Assembly (NCBI GenBank): GCA_025612375.1 | Contig: JAAXKN010000046.1 | Span: forward strand, 1 to 32,078 | Source: Ignavibacteria bacterium | Lineage (GTDB): Bacteria > Bacteroidota > Ignavibacteria > Ignavibacteriales > SURF-24 | DNA length: 32,078 nucleotides | Direction of reading: 5' to 3' | Shown here: positions 1 to 8,518 of the stretch, in pieces | Numbering within the stretch: position 1 is the stretch's first letter | How the letters are laid out: every line of letters begins with the position of its first letter | Position numbers and translations under genes: made by a program | Notes under the pieces: generated by a model | Seen by the model: only the letters and a program-made list of their open reading frames with translations | What the model was told of the DNA's origin: nothing | Databases searched by the model: none

Positions 1-835
1 CTAAGGAAGTGCGGATTATCCTGGAAATAATTTCCCAGTTAAGCTTTATATAAGACCTGAGTACTTTAATGTGTTTGCCATCATGAAACAGAAGCCAAAG
101 CTGTGCAATTACTCCTATTGCCCTGCCTGTAGTAGTTGCAATTGCCGCGCCCTGGATTCCCAGTTGGGGAAAAGGACCAAGTCCTAAGATCAGAGCCGGA
201 TCCAGTAAGATATTGATCCCGTTTGCAAGCCATAGTACCCTCATTGCAATTGCCGCATCGCCGGCCCCCCTGAAAATTGCATTAATCATAAAGAGGAGCA
301 TGATAACTGCATTTCCTCCCATCATCACCTGTGTAAAACGGTAGCCATATTCCAGGACCCATCTGTCAGCACCCATAAGCAGAAGCAGATCTTTTGCATA
401 GAAAACACCAGCAAAGGCAAAGGGGATTGATGCTATGACTGCAATAAATATTGCCTGAACGGCAGTCATTCCGGCCTTCTCTTTATTCTTTTCTCCGATA
501 CGCCTTGCAACGATAGCCGTTACGGCAGTGGACAACCCAATAGCAACCGAGTACAAAAGGAATAAATATGTTTCCGTAAGACCTATGGTTGCTACTGCAG
601 AGGGGCCAAGTGAACTTACAAAATAGATATCAACAACAGCAAAGGCGGATTCCATTATGAGTTCCAGGATCATCGGAACGGCAAGCAGAAAGATTGCCCT
701 GCTTAAGGGAATCTGTGTATAATCAGCCTCACTTCCCCTTACAGCATTTTTCAGTTCAGTCCACACAGACCTTTTTGACGATTCTGCAGAAGAGCTGTTT
801 TTTACGGGTATTTCGAATTTATCTCCTTCTCTCAC
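1..835 (-). CDS. MATE family efflux transporter (5' part; runs off the window)
   Basis: This is the N-terminal 278 codons of a multidrug and toxin extrusion (MATE) type inner-membrane antiporter, which exports drugs or metabolites using a Na+ or H+ gradient. After a hydrophilic leader of about 45 residues come hydrophobic helices. MATE-like segments include PLSRAIFLLAVPMILELIME, then VVDIYFVSSLGPSAVATIGL, GLSTAVTAIVARRIGEKN and NAIFRGAGDAAIAM followed by a helix with LDPALILG. The C-terminal half lies beyond base 1. The start is GTG at 835-833: an AAAGGA lies upstream, and the next in-frame Met is already inside the first helix. It is transcribed away from the RecQ gene, with 356 bases between them. 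The family is clear; the substrate cannot be predicted. Confidence 0.9.
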   Translation of the reverse strand, partial: MREGDKFEIPVKNSSSAESSKRSVWTELKNAVRGSEADYTQIPLSRAIFLLAVPMILELIMESAFAVVDIYFVSSLGPSAVATIGLTETYLFLLYSVAIGLSTAVTAIVARRIGEKNKEKAGMTAVQAIFIAVIASIPFAFAGVFYAKDLLLLMGADRWVLEYGYRFTQVMMGGNAVIMLLFMINAIFRGAGDAAIAMRVLWLANGINILLDPALILGLGPFPQLGIQGAAIATTTGRAIGVIAQLWLLFHDGKHIKVLRSYIKLNWEIISRIIRTSL

Positions 836-1191
836 GCAAATGTCCTTTCTGTGATATACAACTTAATTCCTAATAATATAACAGTATAATATGATTCAGG
901 AGAGGCATAAAAGCGGCAATTTTTTGGAGCAATTGCTGCAAGTTCCAAATGCAAAAGGGGGCTTGTTTCCGGTGATTGAATTATAAATCCTTTTCCTGGG
1001 AAATTGTGCCGTGCGGCACTGCAGGCCCTTTGTTGACCAGGCACATTCCTTTTTGTAAGCAGAAATTTTATGGTTCAGTATGGAAAGCTGTGCAATATGC
1101 TTTACTGCGCCCGGGTATGTAATAATATGCGAACCTATGCTGAATTACAAAGCACGATGAGATTATTACTAACAATAGATTCTATGAAGCC
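836..1191. other. Intergenic region between divergent MATE and RecQ-PRT genes
   Basis: These 356 bases hold no convincing gene; a 70-codon open frame on the minus strand has no recognisable features. The region must contain both divergent promoters. A small perfect palindrome (GTGCCG-tg-CGGCAC, 1006-1019) sits roughly in the middle and could be an operator, but nothing else supports that. No clear sigma-70 promoter can be assigned with confidence. Confidence 0.5.
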
Positions 1192-3207
1192 ATGAACAGA
1201 AAAGATGCTGAACTACTGCTGAAGAAAAAGTTTGGATATGAAAAATTTTACGACAAACAATGGGAAGCAATTGAAAAAGTACTGAATGGTGAAAGAGTAC
1301 TTTTAATTGAAAAAACAGGATTTGGAAAATCTTTATGTTTTCAGTTTCCTGCAATTATCTTTCCTGATACTACAGTGATCTTTTCACCTTTGATCGCTCT
1401 GATGCGTGACCAGGTAAAGAAACTCAATAATATAGGCATTTCCGCCAGATGCATTAATAGCGAACAGGACCCCGGAGAAAACCGCAGGATTATGGCTGAG
1501 GCAAGGTCCGGAAAGGTGAAAATACTTTATATTGCACCGGAAAGGCAGGAAGATGAAGATTGGATTGAAGTTACAGTGCAATTGAACCTTTCAATGATAG
1601 TTATTGATGAAGCGCATTGCATTTCTGAATGGGGGCATGACTTTAGACCATCTTTTAAGAGAATTATTAATCTTGTAAAACTTTTGCCTAAAAAATTCCC
1701 GGTTCTGGCTACTACAGCTACCGCCACTAAAAGAGTGGAGAAGGATGTTGCAGAACAAATTGGCGGAAATATTACTATTCTTAGAGGGCATTTAATGCGT
1801 CCTAATTTCAGGCTTTATGTCATAACAGTAAATTCTGACGATGAAAAGATGGCCTGGCTGGGTGAGTATCTCTGCAGGATACCGGGATCAGGAATTATTT
1901 ATTCAGGTACAAGAATAGATACAGAAGTATATGCAAAGTGGCTAGAGTATCTGAATATCCCTTCGACAAATTATAATGCCGGCCTGGATTCAGGTACAAG
2001 AATCGAAATAGAAAACGGCTTAATGACAAACAAATGGAAGTGTATAGTTGCAACTAATGCACTGGGAATGGGAATTGATAAGCCGGATATAAGATTTATT
2101 ATTCATACACAAATACCCCAGTCTCCTATCCACTACTATCAGGAAATAGGCAGAGCAGGCAGGGATAATAAACCTGCTTTTATTATTCTGTTTTACGGTC
2201 CGGATGACAGGAGCCTGCCCGAAGCGTTTATTGAAGGAAGCAGGCCTTCAGTTAAAAAATATGAAAGAGTAATATCTGCTGTAAGACATGAATTGCTTGG
2301 TGAATACGAAATTATGAAGCAAATAAACCTTAGACGAAATCAGTTTAGAGTTATCAAGGCAGATCTGATAGATCAGGGGATAATAAGAGAGGTGCGGTTT
2401 GGAAAAAGCAGAAAGTTTGAATATGTTACAAATGCACCGGCTTTGAATACAAAGATATTTGAAGAACTCCGGGAAGCAAAAAGAATTGATCTGGAAAAAA
2501 TGGTGGAATATGTCGGTATTAAAAGCTCAAGGATGCAGTATCTGTGTGATTACCTGGGCGATTTGTCGAAGTGTAATTTTACTAATTGCGATAATACAGG
2601 CCTTCACAAACTTACCGCAAATTTAAGTCCTGCATGGAATGAAAAGCTTAACCAATTCAGAGAAAATTATTTCCCTGAGCTTTTAGTGGAGTCAAGAGGA
2701 TCAAATTTAGTAAATGGAATAGCAGCTTCATATTATGGATTTTCTAACGTGGGAAGCGCCATTCACAGGTCCAAATATGAGAACGGAGGGGACTTCCCTG
2801 ATTTTCTGCTGAAACTTACATTAAAAGCTTATAATAAAAGATTCGGCAAAGATCACTTCGATTATATTCTTTTTGTTCCGCCTACAAAGTCGGGAAACCT
2901 GGTGAAAAACTTTGCCACAAAGATTTCACAGATGCTTAATATTCCTTTATCGGAGGATCTGGTTAAAGTTAAAACAACCCGGGAGCAGAAGATATTTGAG
3001 AACCATTTACTTAAGGAGAATAACATAAAAAATGCATTCAGAATAAATAATCCAAACTGTATTGAGGGTAAAAGTATTCTGCTTATTGACGATATTTGTG
3101 ACAGCGGCGCAACTATCAGGGAAATAGGAAAGCTGCTTACCGGATGCGGAGCAGGTAAAATAGCTCCTCTTGTAATTGCCAGGACAGTCGGGGGTGATTT
3201 AAAATAA
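1192..3207 (+). CDS. RecQ-family ATP-dependent DNA helicase fused to a C-terminal phosphoribosyltransferase domain
   Basis: A 671-residue superfamily 2 helicase expected to unwind DNA 3'-5' using ATP. Motifs in order: Walker A-type EKTGFGKSLCFQ (40-51, a variant of the usual TGGGKS), DEAHCISEWGHDFRP (139-153), ATTATAT (173-179), IIYSGTR (235-241), ATNALGMGIDKPDIR (287-301) and QEIGRAGRD (317-325). The RecQ zinc region is degenerate: Cys452, Cys461 and Cys466 remain, and the fourth Cys is absent (CDNTG). There is no obvious HRDC domain. Instead, residues about 550-671 resemble a type I phosphoribosyltransferase, with the PRPP-loop motif ILLIDDICDSGAT at 629-641. The gene lies 61 bases before a DprA-like gene, probably in one transcript. 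The start ATG has only a weak upstream purine run. The codons are A/T-rich compared with downstream genes, which suggests transfer. The helicase is certain and the PRT call strong; the biological role is unknown. Confidence 0.92.
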   Translation: MNRKDAELLLKKKFGYEKFYDKQWEAIEKVLNGERVLLIEKTGFGKSLCFQFPAIIFPDTTVIFSPLIALMRDQVKKLNNIGISARCINSEQDPGENRRIMAEARSGKVKILYIAPERQEDEDWIEVTVQLNLSMIVIDEAHCISEWGHDFRPSFKRIINLVKLLPKKFPVLATTATATKRVEKDVAEQIGGNITILRGHLMRPNFRLYVITVNSDDEKMAWLGEYLCRIPGSGIIYSGTRIDTEVYAKWLEYLNIPSTNYNAGLDSGTRIEIENGLMTNKWKCIVATNALGMGIDKPDIRFIIHTQIPQSPIHYYQEIGRAGRDNKPAFIILFYGPDDRSLPEAFIEGSRPSVKKYERVISAVRHELLGEYEIMKQINLRRNQFRVIKADLIDQGIIREVRFGKSRKFEYVTNAPALNTKIFEELREAKRIDLEKMVEYVGIKSSRMQYLCDYLGDLSKCNFTNCDNTGLHKLTANLSPAWNEKLNQFRENYFPELLVESRGSNLVNGIAASYYGFSNVGSAIHRSKYENGGDFPDFLLKLTLKAYNKRFGKDHFDYILFVPPTKSGNLVKNFATKISQMLNIPLSEDLVKVKTTREQKIFENHLLKENNIKNAFRINNPNCIEGKSILLIDDICDSGATIREIGKLLTGCGAGKIAPLVIARTVGGDLK

Positions 3208-3268
3208 TTAGTGTTTTATATTTGTCAGTATAATTATTATCAAAAGAATTTATTAATAGGATAATCTT

Positions 3269-4432
3269 ATGGTCAGATCAGAAGAGAATGCTTACTGGAT
3301 ATCTCTTGCGCATATACCCAAATGGGGAAGTGCCAAAATAAATAATCTGATTATAAAAATTTATCATGAAAATAAAATAACTATCGATGAATTCTTCCAC
3401 TTGTCTGAAGATGAATGGAAAAATATATATGGTCTAAGTGATAATGATATTACGGATCTTCTTAAGGCAAAGCCGGGTCTGCCAAATAATGCTTTCCTGG
3501 CTGAAGACCTTCTGAACCAGGGATTTAATTTAATTCCCATCATATCACCTGACTATTCATCCATACTCAAAAGTAATCTGAAATCTACTTATTCTCCGCC
3601 ACTGCTTTATGTAAAAGGAGATAAGCAGATGTTTCAGGAAAAGTCAGTTGCTATTGTCGGCTCCAGAAATGCCGCGGATATATCGCTGAAATTTACTGAC
3701 TGCATTGCACAAATGGTGACAAACGAATATAAGGTAGTGGTAAGCGGATTTGCAAAAGGCGTTGATAAACAGGCTCTGGATTCCGCATTGAAATATAACG
3801 GAAGAAGTATTATAGTATTACCGCAGGGCATAATGACTTTCGGTTCCGGTTTTAAAACATATTATAAACAGATTGTTGAGGGTAATGTGCTTGTTTTAAG
3901 TACATTCTACCCTAAAGCTCCCTGGAGGCCTGAACTTGCAATGGCGCGTAATCCGATCATATATGGACTTGCAAATGAGATATATGTGGCTGAGTCATCA
4001 GAAAAGGGCGGCACATGGTCGGGAGTAATTGACGGCCTGAGGAAAAAAAGAATAATTTATGTCAGGAAACCTTTAGCCACAGAACAAATTGCAAACAATA
4101 TTCTTATTCAGAAAGGTGCCATCCCTGTTGAATTTACAGATAATAAGATTGGAATAGTCCATATTGAAAAAGCACTGGAACAGCGTGAAGGAAGTAAAGC
4201 TGTAGTTATTCCCGGGGAGGAACCGGTTGAAGAAAAGATCCGGGAAATATTAAAAGATTCCAGGCTTCCGGCAGAGGAAATACTGGAAAAGCTTAATAAT
4301 GATTGGTCTATAAAAAAATTATTCAAAGTTTTGCATTCTTTGAATTTCATTGAGATAACAAAGAAGAAGGGTAAAAGTTATTTTAATATAAGAGCTGATT
4401 CAGATACGGAACAGCTTGAACTGACTCTTTAA
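3269..4432 (+). CDS. dprA: Divergent DprA/Smf-family DNA-processing protein
   Basis: 387 residues. DprA proteins bind single-stranded DNA and load RecA during uptake of transforming DNA; the Rossmann-like core belongs to the SLOG/LOG-related folds. Visible here: an N-terminal helical region (10-65) like the HhH/SAM part of DprA; core motifs SVAIVGSRNAA (126-136), VVSGFAKGVD (157-166), GIMTFGSG (187-194) and MARNPIIYGLA (225-235); then a basic strand region and a C-terminal winged-helix-like segment (320-375). Departures from classical DprA: AKGVDKQAL lacks the usual His of the GID-AH motif, and the FPxRNRIIAGLS motif is changed to MARNPIIYGLA. This is therefore probably an accessory paralogue rather than the housekeeping protein. 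It follows the RecQ-PRT gene and shares its low G/C. A weak ATAGGAT ribosome site precedes the ATG. Confidence 0.87.
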   Translation: MVRSEENAYWISLAHIPKWGSAKINNLIIKIYHENKITIDEFFHLSEDEWKNIYGLSDNDITDLLKAKPGLPNNAFLAEDLLNQGFNLIPIISPDYSSILKSNLKSTYSPPLLYVKGDKQMFQEKSVAIVGSRNAADISLKFTDCIAQMVTNEYKVVVSGFAKGVDKQALDSALKYNGRSIIVLPQGIMTFGSGFKTYYKQIVEGNVLVLSTFYPKAPWRPELAMARNPIIYGLANEIYVAESSEKGGTWSGVIDGLRKKRIIYVRKPLATEQIANNILIQKGAIPVEFTDNKIGIVHIEKALEQREGSKAVVIPGEEPVEEKIREILKDSRLPAEEILEKLNNDWSIKKLFKVLHSLNFIEITKKKGKSYFNIRADSDTEQLELTL

Positions 4433-4483
4433 AGGGCAAAAGAGAAATGATAATATTATGCAAATAAATCCAGGAGTGAAGAA

Positions 4484-4816
4484 ATGATACAGGATACAAT
4501 TGCTAAACTTGAAGAGAAGATAAGAACTAACAGCTCACTGAGCGAAGAAAACAGGGCTGAACTGCTTTACCTGCTCTCACAGCTGAATCCGCAGATTACG
4601 GAACTCTCCAGGACTCATTCTGAACACGCGGAGAATATTGCAGGCTCCATTGAACGCTCGGCCTACGAGGCGATGCAGGAGGAGAGAAATCCGGGCACTC
4701 TGAAATCGGAAATTGATACGCTCTCGGATTCGGTAAAGGATTTTGAAGTCTCACACCCGAAACTGGTTGAAACGGTTAATTATATCGCTAATGTTCTGGC
4801 AAATATGGGAATTTAA
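4484..4816 (+). CDS. Small helical protein, DUF4404-like
   Basis: A 110-residue acidic, heptad-rich protein without signal peptide or membrane segment, so probably cytoplasmic. Segments such as IAKLEEKIRTNSSLSEENRAELL and the end VNYIANVLANMGI resemble the DUF4404 family of short proteins of unknown function. A good ribosome site (CAGGAGTGAAGAA) precedes the ATG. It starts 51 bases after the DprA-like gene, but its codons are richer in G/C than that module, so it may be a separate unit of the host chromosome. The family assignment is from memory of its pattern; no function can be given. Confidence 0.75.
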   Translation: MIQDTIAKLEEKIRTNSSLSEENRAELLYLLSQLNPQITELSRTHSEHAENIAGSIERSAYEAMQEERNPGTLKSEIDTLSDSVKDFEVSHPKLVETVNYIANVLANMGI

Positions 4817-4954
4817 CCATTCTATCATATCTACGAATGACAAAGATTTAGATTTTGTCTGTGGCTAATGCTAAATTTACGGATGAAATAATGGTTTATT
4901 TAATGCTGTTTCGTCACTGATAAGTATCTGCATATCACTCAACAAGGAGTTATT

Positions 4955-5531: not shown

Positions 5532-5619
5532 CTGGTTTTATTCCATCGAATCTCCAGCGCTTTGAATCTGCCCCGGCTGGAATTTCTGCCTTTGGGTCGC
5601 CGGTATTGAAACTCCTTTG

Positions 5620-6708
5620 CTAGGCCATCTCTTCACTGATTATTTCATGCCGGTGCTTTGTTTTATTTTTCAGCTCTGCGCGGCATTCGGGGCAGTACTG
5701 CCATTCGGGCTGTACCGGGTACTGGCATTGCTGGCAGAAATTGTTTGAAAGGTCAAAGCCGCAATGCGGGCAGTATGCCCTCGTTCCGTTCAGCTCGCCT
5801 TTGCATTCAGGACATGTGGATGACTTTAGTGTATCGGGTCTTGTTATTAGATAAACCGTAAGTCCGAAGAACAATGAAATTAAAGAAAGGAATGCCCAGA
5901 TTCCCGGCGTCTTTACGTCGCGTTCCTTTGCATCCACATAGACCCAGGTGGGAAGAAGGAACCAAAGGAATATTCCGGAAATGACGAGTAATATTGTAGG
6001 AATAATTCTTAAGGCATCGCTAAGATCACTTCTTTCAAATCTCCACTCGTTATAATATTTTTTCTCATTTACCCTGTCGTCGACCTTCATGAAAAGTTTG
6101 CCTATAAGCTTTCCACCGTCATCATAAACCGGGGTTGAAAAGCTGGTTGTAGGCGGCTGCAGAAGCGATTCATTGCCGTCGCCCTTGAAGAAGCGCCAGC
6201 TGTTTTCCTCTTCCCACCTTTCCGGGCGTTCGGCTCTTTCGAACTGAGAGAAGTCAACTCTGTCTGTCTTATCCACCAGTTTAGTTAGAAAGTCATTCCT
6301 GTCGCGGTAGAATTCGTCGGCTTTTATCCTGTCGCGGTATTTATCGAATGCATCGTTTGTTTTTTGAAAATCCGCCGTTGGAACGCCGAACAGGAAATCA
6401 TCCGTCATTGAAGACATCCACAAGTATTTCTTGGGCTCATCGGCTTTCTGATGTTCCACCATATATTCCGACTGAAGTTCGTTAATGAGAACCGGATCGG
6501 GCTTTGCCGATTTAATTCTGGAAGCAATTCCTTTCAAATACCTTGTATTCTGCTCCATAAAGGAATTGATATATCTATTGAATTCCTCTTTGTGCTTGTC
6601 AAACTGTGCATTATATATGGGAATTGTTGCCAGCAGAAAAACAATTGAGACGCCTGCAACAATTGCAGCAGGTATTGCAAGTTTACGAATCAGCTTTCTT
6701 TTGCTCAT
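5620..6708 (-). CDS. Membrane-anchored protein with an extracytoplasmic domain and a double zinc ribbon
   Basis: 362 residues, family not recognised by name. An N-terminal helix (about 10-32, IPAAIVAGVSIVFLLATIPI) is followed by an extracytoplasmic-looking domain of about 200 residues rich in charged and aromatic residues, then two helices (about 235-295; IIPTILLVISGIFLWFLL and WAFLSLISLFFGLTVYLI). Last comes a cytoplasmic tail with four CxxC knuckles: C299/C302, C313/C316, C325/C328 and C339/C342, forming two zinc ribbons. The start has a good GGAGAAAAT site. It is the last gene of the sigma/anti-sigma operon, 21 bases downstream of the anti-sigma gene. The layout (sensor-like outer part, zinc-ribbon inner part) would fit signal transfer or envelope stress, but that is inference. 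Confidence 0.85.
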   Translation of the reverse strand: MSKRKLIRKLAIPAAIVAGVSIVFLLATIPIYNAQFDKHKEEFNRYINSFMEQNTRYLKGIASRIKSAKPDPVLINELQSEYMVEHQKADEPKKYLWMSSMTDDFLFGVPTADFQKTNDAFDKYRDRIKADEFYRDRNDFLTKLVDKTDRVDFSQFERAERPERWEEENSWRFFKGDGNESLLQPPTTSFSTPVYDDGGKLIGKLFMKVDDRVNEKKYYNEWRFERSDLSDALRIIPTILLVISGIFLWFLLPTWVYVDAKERDVKTPGIWAFLSLISLFFGLTVYLITRPDTLKSSTCPECKGELNGTRAYCPHCGFDLSNNFCQQCQYPVQPEWQYCPECRAELKNKTKHRHEIISEEMA

Positions 6709-6729
6709 ATTTTCTCCAAAAAATATATT

Positions 6730-7221
6730 TTAATTAAAACTGTTTTTTCTGTTCGACTCCATCAGCAGTATGGGAGCCATTGCAAGAGTTATAAATGATC
6801 CTGCAATAAGAACCAGCGCAACGGACACACCTGTGTCTCCTAAGGACCGGATTATCCAATTCTTTTCTATAATATTCCAGAAGGGAAGGAGTGTTATCTG
6901 GATTTTAATAAAGTAGACAAGTGCGAATAAAAATATTTCACCGAATGCAATCTTAAGAACAGGCAGCAGCTCCACTCTGGTTTTCTTTTTTGTTGGTTTT
7001 ATAACCGGTACGGAAACTTCCCGGAGAATGCTGCCGAACAGGTCCCCGCGCGGTTCTTCTTCTTTCAATTCTGAAAGCAGATTCATTGTTCCATCCAGGC
7101 TTTCCAGGTATTCCCTGCATCCTGGGCAGGTTTTAATATGCTCCGCCACTTCTGCGTGGTCCTCTTCACTTCCTTCATGGAAGTAAAGATCCAGTAAATG
7201 ATTCTTATTTTCGCAATACAT
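6730..7221 (-). CDS. Anti-sigma factor with zinc-finger ZAS domain and two membrane helices
   Basis: 163 residues. The N-terminal part carries the zinc-binding anti-sigma (zf-HC2/ZAS) signature HIKTCPGCREYL: His28-x3-Cys32-x2-Cys35, with Cys3 as a possible extra ligand. A charged linker follows, then two hydrophobic segments (about 87-110 and 125-152), placing the ZAS domain in the cytoplasm where it would hold the sigma factor. Only one base separates it from the sigma stop codon (TACTGATATG at the junction), so the two are almost certainly translationally coupled and made in fixed ratio. The signal that releases the sigma factor is not visible; there is no large periplasmic domain here, but the next gene has one. 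Confidence 0.9.
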   Translation of the reverse strand: MYCENKNHLLDLYFHEGSEEDHAEVAEHIKTCPGCREYLESLDGTMNLLSELKEEEPRGDLFGSILREVSVPVIKPTKKKTRVELLPVLKIAFGEIFLFALVYFIKIQITLLPFWNIIEKNWIIRSLGDTGVSVALVLIAGSFITLAMAPILLMESNRKNSFN

Positions 7222-7222
7222 A

Positions 7223-7813
7223 TCAGTACTCCGTCTTTTGCAAAATCTTTCTTAACTGACCCAGGGCATTATGGAAGCGGGCTTTTAAGGTCCCTTCCGG
7301 TGTGTTTGTTACTTCGGCAATTTCAGAAAACTTCATCTTCTGATAATGCTTCAGAATGATCACTTCTTTCAGAAAAGGATTTAACTGTTCAAGCGCACTG
7401 GCTATTGTATCTTTTAGCTCTGTGTATTCCAGAAAGCAGACAGCGGGTTCCTCTTCCTTTTTACCGGAGGGTTCATCTTCCAGTATCACATCCTCAAGGT
7501 CAATATGCGGATAACTATAACGCTTCTTTACCATCTCGCTGCGGGTGATGTTTATTCCGATAGTAAACAGCCACGACTTAAAAGCTCCTTTTTCAGGATC
7601 AAAGCTATGGGATGAGAACCAGGCCTTTGTAAAAGTCTCCTGAAGAAGGTCTTCTGCGATCTCCCGGTTATTAGTATAGCGCAGTATAAAGTTATACACA
7701 CTTTTACCGTACCTGTCGTATAGGACTTTCAGGGCATTGGTATTCCTATCGGTCACCAGAGCCATCAAGTCCTCGTCGGAATACTTTATTATATTTTTAT
7801 CGGTGTTATCCAT
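7223..7813 (-). CDS. ECF-type RNA polymerase sigma factor
   Basis: 196 residues, the usual size for an ECF sigma-70 factor. Region 2 covers about residues 28-100 (YDRYGKSVYNFILRYTNNRE, then AEDLLQETFTKAW and SWLFTIGINITRSEMVKKR). Region 4 covers about 140-192 (LNPFLKEVIILKHY, FSEIAEVTNTPEGTLKARFH), the helix-turn-helix that reads the -35 element. The acidic linker (LEDVILEDEPSGKKEEE) is longer than average. It is the first gene of a three-gene operon with its anti-sigma factor. ECF factors usually activate their own promoter; two copies of ATATAGCTAT lie just upstream and are candidate control sites. No clear Shine-Dalgarno is seen before the ATG. Confidence 0.95.
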   Translation of the reverse strand: MDNTDKNIIKYSDEDLMALVTDRNTNALKVLYDRYGKSVYNFILRYTNNREIAEDLLQETFTKAWFSSHSFDPEKGAFKSWLFTIGINITRSEMVKKRYSYPHIDLEDVILEDEPSGKKEEEPAVCFLEYTELKDTIASALEQLNPFLKEVIILKHYQKMKFSEIAEVTNTPEGTLKARFHNALGQLRKILQKTEY

Positions 7814-7817
7814 CTAT

Positions 7818-7904
7818 ATATAGCTATACAGGCTGAAAGGGTAAAAGGTTGTGTCCTTTACTGAAAAATTAAAAAATATTAATAGGAGGGCGCAATATAG
7901 CTAT
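7818..7904. promoter_or_regulatory. Repeated ATATAGCTAT sites upstream of the sigma gene
   Basis: The 10-mer ATATAGCTAT occurs at 7818-7827, five bases before the sigma start codon, and again at 7895-7904; the core TATAGCTATA at 7819-7828 is palindromic. Spacing is 77 bases, about seven helical turns. These may be binding sites for a regulator or parts of promoters. This is suggestive only, because A/T-rich palindromes arise easily by chance. Confidence 0.3.
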
Positions 7905-8077
7905 CATTAGTAAAGAATTCAGCTAATTTCCCCGGTTCTTCCTGAAAAAAATGCACCTTGGGTCGGGTGAATAACCTGGCAGGGGAATAAGCCGGATTTG
8001 CAGAAAATATATGGCTGTGCTTGCAACTGAGCATATGAAACCATAAGTTTTACTACCACAATTTGGGAATCAGGTAT

Positions 8078-8518
8078 ATGAAAACTGTCCGCCTGTTCGT
8101 TTTAGCAGCTTTGTTATCTCTGCAGTTTGTTTCCGGGCTGTCTGCGCAGTCACATCCCAAAAATATTAAGGCATACCTTACGGTCAGTTTTCAGGGTAAG
8201 GCAATTGAGAACAAAGAATTCCATACGGCCGGAATTGCAGATAAAATTTCAGACATAATTACTTCAGAAGGGATAGAGCTGCTTAAAAATGTAGACATTG
8301 GAAAGCCTGGTGAACCCTGCCTTAACATCTATGTAACACTGGATGACAGTCTGAGAATGAGTGCAATAAGTTTTGAAGACGGCGGCAATAACTCGGTCTT
8401 ATCCATTCCCTACCCTGAACTATCGTATGCATACAGGAAAACAGCAGATATAACACGCTCTGTCCGTAAATATGTGAAAGAGTACATTAAGTCTTCTCCA
8501 AAGAAGAGCGGGAAATAA
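8078..8518 (+). CDS. Small secreted protein of unknown function, paired with an outer-membrane barrel protein
   Basis: 146 residues from the ATG at 8078; the open frame begins at a TTG five codons earlier, but the ATG starts a clean signal peptide (MKTVRLFVLAALLSLQFVSG, with likely cleavage after LSAQS-type residues). The mature part of about 120 residues begins with a beta-rich stretch (IKAYLTVSFQGKAIE) and ends with a basic helical tail (ITRSVRKYVKEYIKSSPKK). No known family recognised. It ends 10 bases before the beta-barrel gene, so the two should be co-transcribed and may act together at the outer membrane. A fragment of a paralogue lies downstream of the barrel gene at 10973-11077. Confidence 0.8.
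   Translation: MKTVRLFVLAALLSLQFVSGLSAQSHPKNIKAYLTVSFQGKAIENKEFHTAGIADKISDIITSEGIELLKNVDIGKPGEPCLNIYVTLDDSLRMSAISFEDGGNNSVLSIPYPELSYAYRKTADITRSVRKYVKEYIKSSPKKSGK

What the first reader, a model, noticed from the sequence alone, without database searches (positions are those of the whole stretch)
1192..4432. RecQ-PRT fusion helicase plus divergent DprA-like protein: a candidate undescribed two-gene DNA system
Seen: a RecQ-type helicase whose usual C-terminal parts are replaced by a phosphoribosyltransferase-like domain, followed after 61 bases on the same strand by a DprA-family protein altered in two core motifs. Established: RecQ unwinds DNA, DprA binds ssDNA and loads RecA, its core is related to nucleotide-binding SLOG/LOG folds, and PRTases make or break nucleotides using PRPP. 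Inference: the pair processes incoming or damaged DNA and may couple this to nucleotide chemistry, for example in phage or plasmid defence or in uptake of foreign DNA. I recall that DprA-PRTase associations have been listed as defence candidates but cannot verify it here.
Basis: partly seen in the sequence, partly recalled or inferred. Interest (0 to 1): 0.75.

Follow-up and report, generated by a model that had tools for sequence, protein, structure and literature searches.

The report
PsyrTA (RqlHI) toxin-antitoxin gene pair
The two genes are an ordinary but intact copy of PsyrTA, also called RqlHI, a known toxin-antitoxin pair listed in bacterial-defence databases, in which a helicase carrying a toxic nucleotide-enzyme domain is held in check by a DprA-like partner.

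Summary
In detail: 1192-3207 (+) encodes a 671-aa RecQ-type helicase ending in a phosphoribosyltransferase (PRTase) domain, and 3269-4432 (+) a 387-aa DprA-like protein, 61 bases apart. The pair is not undescribed. PADLOC's PsyrT model matches the first end to end (848 bits, 2-669) and its PsyrA model matches the second (248 bits). PsyrTA is the RqlHI pair studied in pathogenic E. coli, where the PRTase domain is genotoxic and the DprA-like protein binds and restrains it (PMC4670107). Every proposed check came out in favour of such a cassette. In the order, 8 of 59 genomes carry full-length PsyrT, and all 8 have PsyrA immediately downstream; a phylum sample gave 13 of 296, again with PsyrA adjacent (one split by contig ends). 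The genome has a separate housekeeping dprA and two further RecQ-family helicases. The same-genus relative has the same flanks but different genes in the slot. Two genomes of different families share the pair at 91%/85% identity while their housekeeping RecQ and DprA are only 46%/58% identical, so it moves horizontally. Catalytic motifs of helicase and PRTase are intact. An anti-phage role is plausible but unproven for this pair. New member of a known kind; low interest.

The parts
1192..3207 (+). psyrT (rqlH): RecQ-family helicase (motif I KTGFGKS aa 41-47, DEAH aa 139-142, motif VI QEIGRAGRD aa 317-325) plus winged-helix-like linker plus C-terminal PRTase domain (PRPP motif LIDDICDSGAT aa 631-641); the toxin
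   Evidence: PADLOC PsyrT 848 bits over 2-669; Pfam; motif alignment with E. coli and Nostoc plasmid homologues; AlphaFold model
3269..4432 (+). psyrA (rqlI): DprA-like protein, N-terminal helical domain, Rossmann/SLOG core, flexible linker, C-terminal winged helix; the antitoxin
   Evidence: PADLOC PsyrA 248 bits; Pfam DNA_processg_A; model's best PDB match is ShosA 8zva, E 4e-16
923..4841 (.). variable slot holding psyrTA (and a DUF4404 gene at 4484-4816): flanks are colinear with the same-genus genome, this stretch is not
   Evidence: window 1-922 aligns at 91% to G001:C21:786-1707, 4842-4891 at 86% to 4823-4872 and 5617-7931 at 84% to 6187-8500; nothing in between aligns significantly

Best explanation
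The locus is a horizontally acquired PsyrTA (RqlHI) system working as a toxin-antitoxin pair. PsyrT loads on DNA through its RecQ helicase, and its PRTase domain then carries out a damaging PRPP-dependent reaction, most likely on nucleotides or DNA. PsyrA, a DprA paralogue, binds the PRTase domain and keeps it in check. When PsyrA is diverted or lost, for example by binding the ssDNA or ssDNA-protein complexes of a replicating phage or plasmid, PsyrT is released, DNA damage follows, and the cell stops growing or dies. Shown here: gene identity, intact active-site motifs, strict pairing, mobility and accessory status. Shown elsewhere for E. coli RqlHI (PMC4670107): PRTase-dependent genotoxicity, neutralisation by RqlI, physical binding that needs the PRTase domain. 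Inferred: the same roles here, the trigger, the chemistry and the anti-phage purpose.
For: PADLOC PsyrT/PsyrA matches, with positive controls from an E. coli and a Nostoc plasmid scoring on the same models. PsyrT and PsyrA are adjacent in 8/8 order-level genomes and in 13/13 phylum-level genomes, one split over two contig ends. Separate housekeeping dprA (C69, 261 bits) and two further RecQ-family helicases (C4, C1). Patchy presence and an allelic slot in the same-genus relative. Horizontal transfer: G002/G011 pair 90.6%/85.4% identical versus 45.8%/57.5% for housekeeping RecQ/DprA. Residues needed for toxicity in RqlH (PRTase DIVD, including D663) and for helicase activity (K49, D148) have counterparts here: DICD in LIDDICDSGAT, K in KTGFGKS, D in DEAH. 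Homologues lie inside a type I restriction-modification operon on an E. coli conjugative plasmid, beside parAB on a Nostoc plasmid and after a type IIG-like restriction gene in G054.
Against: Identity to the E. coli-type pair is only 33% (PsyrT) and 31% (PsyrA), so function is transferred across a distance. No other defence gene was recognised among the neighbours scanned, which were not the whole window. In a native E. coli host PsyrTA gave no detectable phage protection (PMC12409345). In the 2015 survey many Gram-positives had RqlH without RqlI, so a strict toxin-antitoxin reading does not hold for the whole family.
Confidence: 0.9

Rival explanations
1. A DNA-repair or DNA-uptake module: helicase, PRTase and DprA act together like ComFA, ComFC and DprA on incoming ssDNA, with no toxin-antitoxin or defence role.
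For: DprA and ComF-type PRTase homology (TIGR00201 comF 43 bits, below cut-off); the parallel with comF is drawn in PMC4670107 and PMC5512222.
Against: Accessory and horizontally moving, with a separate housekeeping dprA and RecQ-family helicases; the E. coli homologue is toxic without its partner and its authors saw no transformation.
Confidence: 0.06
2. A DpdF/Dpd-type or other RecQ-family defence helicase rather than PsyrT.
For: DpdF models are the next best PADLOC matches (372 bits and lower).
Against: The best DpdF match covers only residues 4-366 and scores less than half of PsyrT's; PsyrT covers the PRTase end too and the neighbour is PsyrA; NF041063 DpdF scores 175 against a cut-off of 550.
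Confidence: 0.01
3. A decayed or domesticated pair without activity.
For: None beyond the lack of a recognised defence island around it.
Against: Both frames are open with all catalytic motifs intact and homologues conserved across families.
Confidence: 0.03

Closest known systems
PsyrTA / RqlHI (PADLOC PDLC03928 + PDLC03927; E. coli RqlH-RqlI, Pseudomonas syringae PsyrTA)
   Same: Gene order toxin-antitoxin, full domain layout (RecQ helicase-PRTase; DprA-like), intact helicase and PRPP motifs, strict adjacency
   Different: Sequence 33%/31% identical to an E. coli plasmid homologue; 61-base gap instead of overlap; belongs to a distinct clade shared with neighbouring families and Bacteroidota MAGs (58-69% PsyrT identity)
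ShosTA (and the P2-phage DprA-PRTase pair of PMC9122126)
   Same: DprA-like antitoxin with PRTase partner; best solved-structure match of PsyrA is ShosA (8zva)
   Different: The ShosT model is 237 positions and matches only the PRTase end of the window protein (547-666); the window toxin carries a RecQ helicase
ComFA/ComFC/DprA competence proteins
   Same: A helicase, a PRTase and DprA acting together on DNA
   Different: Not fused, competence genes, no known toxin-antitoxin role (own knowledge)

Membership tests
PsyrTA / RqlHI | RecQ-family helicase fused to a C-terminal PRTase domain, full-length match to PsyrT | tested here: met
   PADLOC 848 bits, 2-669 of the protein against 2-688/689; Pfam
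PsyrTA / RqlHI | DprA-like partner immediately downstream on the same strand, matching PsyrA | tested here: met
   248 bits, 61-base gap; pairing in 8/8 and 13/13 relatives
PsyrTA / RqlHI | Intact PRPP-binding and helicase residues shown necessary in E. coli RqlH | tested here: met
   LIDDICDSGAT, KTGFGKS, DEAH aligned with E. coli and Nostoc homologues and with PMC4670107
PsyrTA / RqlHI | Toxicity of T alone, relieved by A; physical interaction | not testable with these tools
   Only known for E. coli RqlHI (PMC4670107)
ShosTA | Stand-alone PRTase toxin with ShosA | tested here: not met
   The toxin is a 671-aa helicase fusion; ShosT matches only 547-666, 28 bits
DpdF (Dpd system) | Full-length DpdF match | tested here: not met
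   Partial match; NCBIfam DpdF 175 bits against cut-off 550
Housekeeping DprA | Equivalog-level dprA match and the only dprA of the genome | tested here: not met
   TIGR00732 103 bits against cut-off 191; the true dprA is at C69

The most novel reading that the evidence does not exclude
The clade to which this pair belongs (about a third identical to the studied E. coli-type pair) could use its PRTase for a different reaction or respond to a different trigger than RqlHI, making it a functionally distinct PsyrTA subtype.
Probability: 0.1. Interest if true: 0.4.

Novelty: new member of a known kind. Interest (0 to 1): 0.15.

Why it matters
It removes a claimed new system and places it in a known one. 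The remaining open question belongs to the whole PsyrTA/ShosTA group: what the PRTase domain does to DNA or nucleotides, and how a DprA-like protein switches it. The divergent clade reported here gives extra sequence diversity for mapping that interface.

Tried and rejected
The genome-contig scan with P0001 gave only two further loci. The 50-bp conserved stretch at 4842-4891 was tested as a dispersed repeat that might mark an insertion boundary: it is single-copy in the genome, so rejected. PsyrT was sought in phages: no record covers 80% of it. An apparent orphan PsyrA in G027 lies about 120 bases from a contig end with its T side off the contig, so it is undecided, not an orphan. The RqlH biochemistry paper (PMC3378886) is not held, so its content is cited only through PMC4670107.

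Full report
Observation. The two ORFs are real and correctly placed: 1192-3207 (+, 671 aa) and 3269-4432 (+, 387 aa), separated by 61 bases. Pfam finds DEAD, Helicase_C and Pribosyltran in the first protein and DNA_processg_A in the second. No RQC or HRDC domain is detected, but the AlphaFold model (mean pLDDT 80) shows a winged-helix-like unit at about 354-411 between helicase and PRTase, and aligns to solved RecQ catalytic cores over 464-501 columns in the top three hits.

Identity. PADLOC names both genes. PsyrT matches 2-669 of the first protein (848 bits, 1e-255) and PsyrA matches the second (248 bits, 5e-74); the next families are far weaker (DpdF 372 bits over the helicase part only; ShosA 107 bits). 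The same two models recognise an annotated RecQ/DprA pair on an E. coli plasmid and on a Nostoc plasmid. NCBIfam keeps the second protein well below the dprA equivalog cut-off (103 against 191 bits). The PsyrA model (pLDDT 85) has the DprA layout with a C-terminal winged helix, and its best solved match is the antitoxin ShosA from E. coli (8zva), followed by DprA structures.

What is known of the family. Russell and Mulvey (PMC4670107) showed in pathogenic E. coli that RqlH alone induces SOS, filamentation and mutation, that this needs the PRTase domain (abolished by D663A), that the DprA-homologous RqlI relieves it, and that the two proteins co-immunoprecipitate only if the PRTase domain is present. 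PsyrTA of Pseudomonas syringae is cited as a validated toxin-antitoxin family (PMC8790059). Rousset et al. (PMC9122126) found that a phage-borne DprA-PRTase pair protects against T7 and lambda and link it to shosTA, syrTA and rqlHI. Phage SSB is reported to activate the related ShosTA (PMC10732053). Against a defence role, PsyrTA gave no detectable protection in one native-host study (PMC12409345).

Membership tests. The residues that matter in RqlH have counterparts here: the PRPP motif LIDDICDSGAT (E. coli plasmid LVDDIVDSGWT), the Walker motif KTGFGKS and DEAH. In PsyrA the unusual motifs (VLPQGI, AMARNPIIYGL) are shared by the homologues of its clade and differ from all ten housekeeping DprA proteins compared; GSR and SGxAxGxD are invariant. 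They mark the subfamily and are not decay.

Co-occurrence. Of 59 genomes of the same order, 8 carry full-length PsyrT (824-995 bits; all other matches listed are at most 416 bits and lack the PRTase end), and each of the 8 has PsyrA next to it on the same strand. In a sample of 296 genomes of the phylum, 13 have PsyrT, and all 13 have PsyrA: 12 directly downstream and one with the two genes at the ends of two contigs (the four order-level genomes among the 13 are).

Accessory status. The genome has a separate housekeeping dprA (C69, 261 bits) and two other RecQ-family helicases. The only other genome of the genus searched lacks the pair and has the same flanks: window 1-922 aligns at 91% and 5617-7931 at 84% in the same order, but between them that genome has other genes, including a truncated HipA-type toxin gene. 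Identity does not follow kinship. G002 and G011, of different families, share PsyrT at 90.6% and PsyrA at 85.4% while their housekeeping RecQ and DprA are 45.8% and 57.5% identical; G006 and G054, of one genus, have housekeeping proteins 83-90% identical but PsyrT only 34%. This is best explained by horizontal transfer. Elsewhere the pair sits inside a type I restriction-modification operon on an E. coli conjugative plasmid, beside parAB on a Nostoc plasmid, and after a type IIG-like restriction gene in G054. No other defence gene was recognised among the neighbours scanned in the window itself; not every ORF of the window was scanned.

Mechanism. Most likely a toxin-antitoxin unit: PsyrT is a DNA-loaded PRTase toxin, and PsyrA is a direct inhibitor that can be drawn away by ssDNA or ssDNA-protein complexes. 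The first half is shown for E. coli RqlHI; the trigger, the chemistry and the anti-phage purpose are inference. It is a described one, and the finding is a new member of a known kind.

Noticed in passing
L065:2930-3538 (same-genus genome, slot equivalent to window 923-4841): A truncated HipA C-terminal gene (Pfam HipA_C positions 40-213) overlaps a secretion-tail gene in the slot where this window has psyrTA, which suggests a variable site that collects toxin genes.
   Followed up: partly
L090 (E. coli plasmid NZ_OX030731.1, 34045-44124): psyrTA lies between hsdS and hsdR inside a type I restriction-modification operon on a conjugative plasmid.
   Followed up: no
window 4484-4816 (+): DUF4404 gene directly after psyrA, inside the non-colinear stretch; it may be cargo of the same insertion.
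   Followed up: no
window 4842-4891: A 50-bp stretch 86% identical to the same-genus genome although its surroundings differ; single copy in the genome.
   Followed up: partly
L049:9401-10324 and L035:1441-2445: Two PsyrA homologues (G026, G027) lack the C-terminal winged helix, so it seems dispensable in some copies.
   Followed up: no
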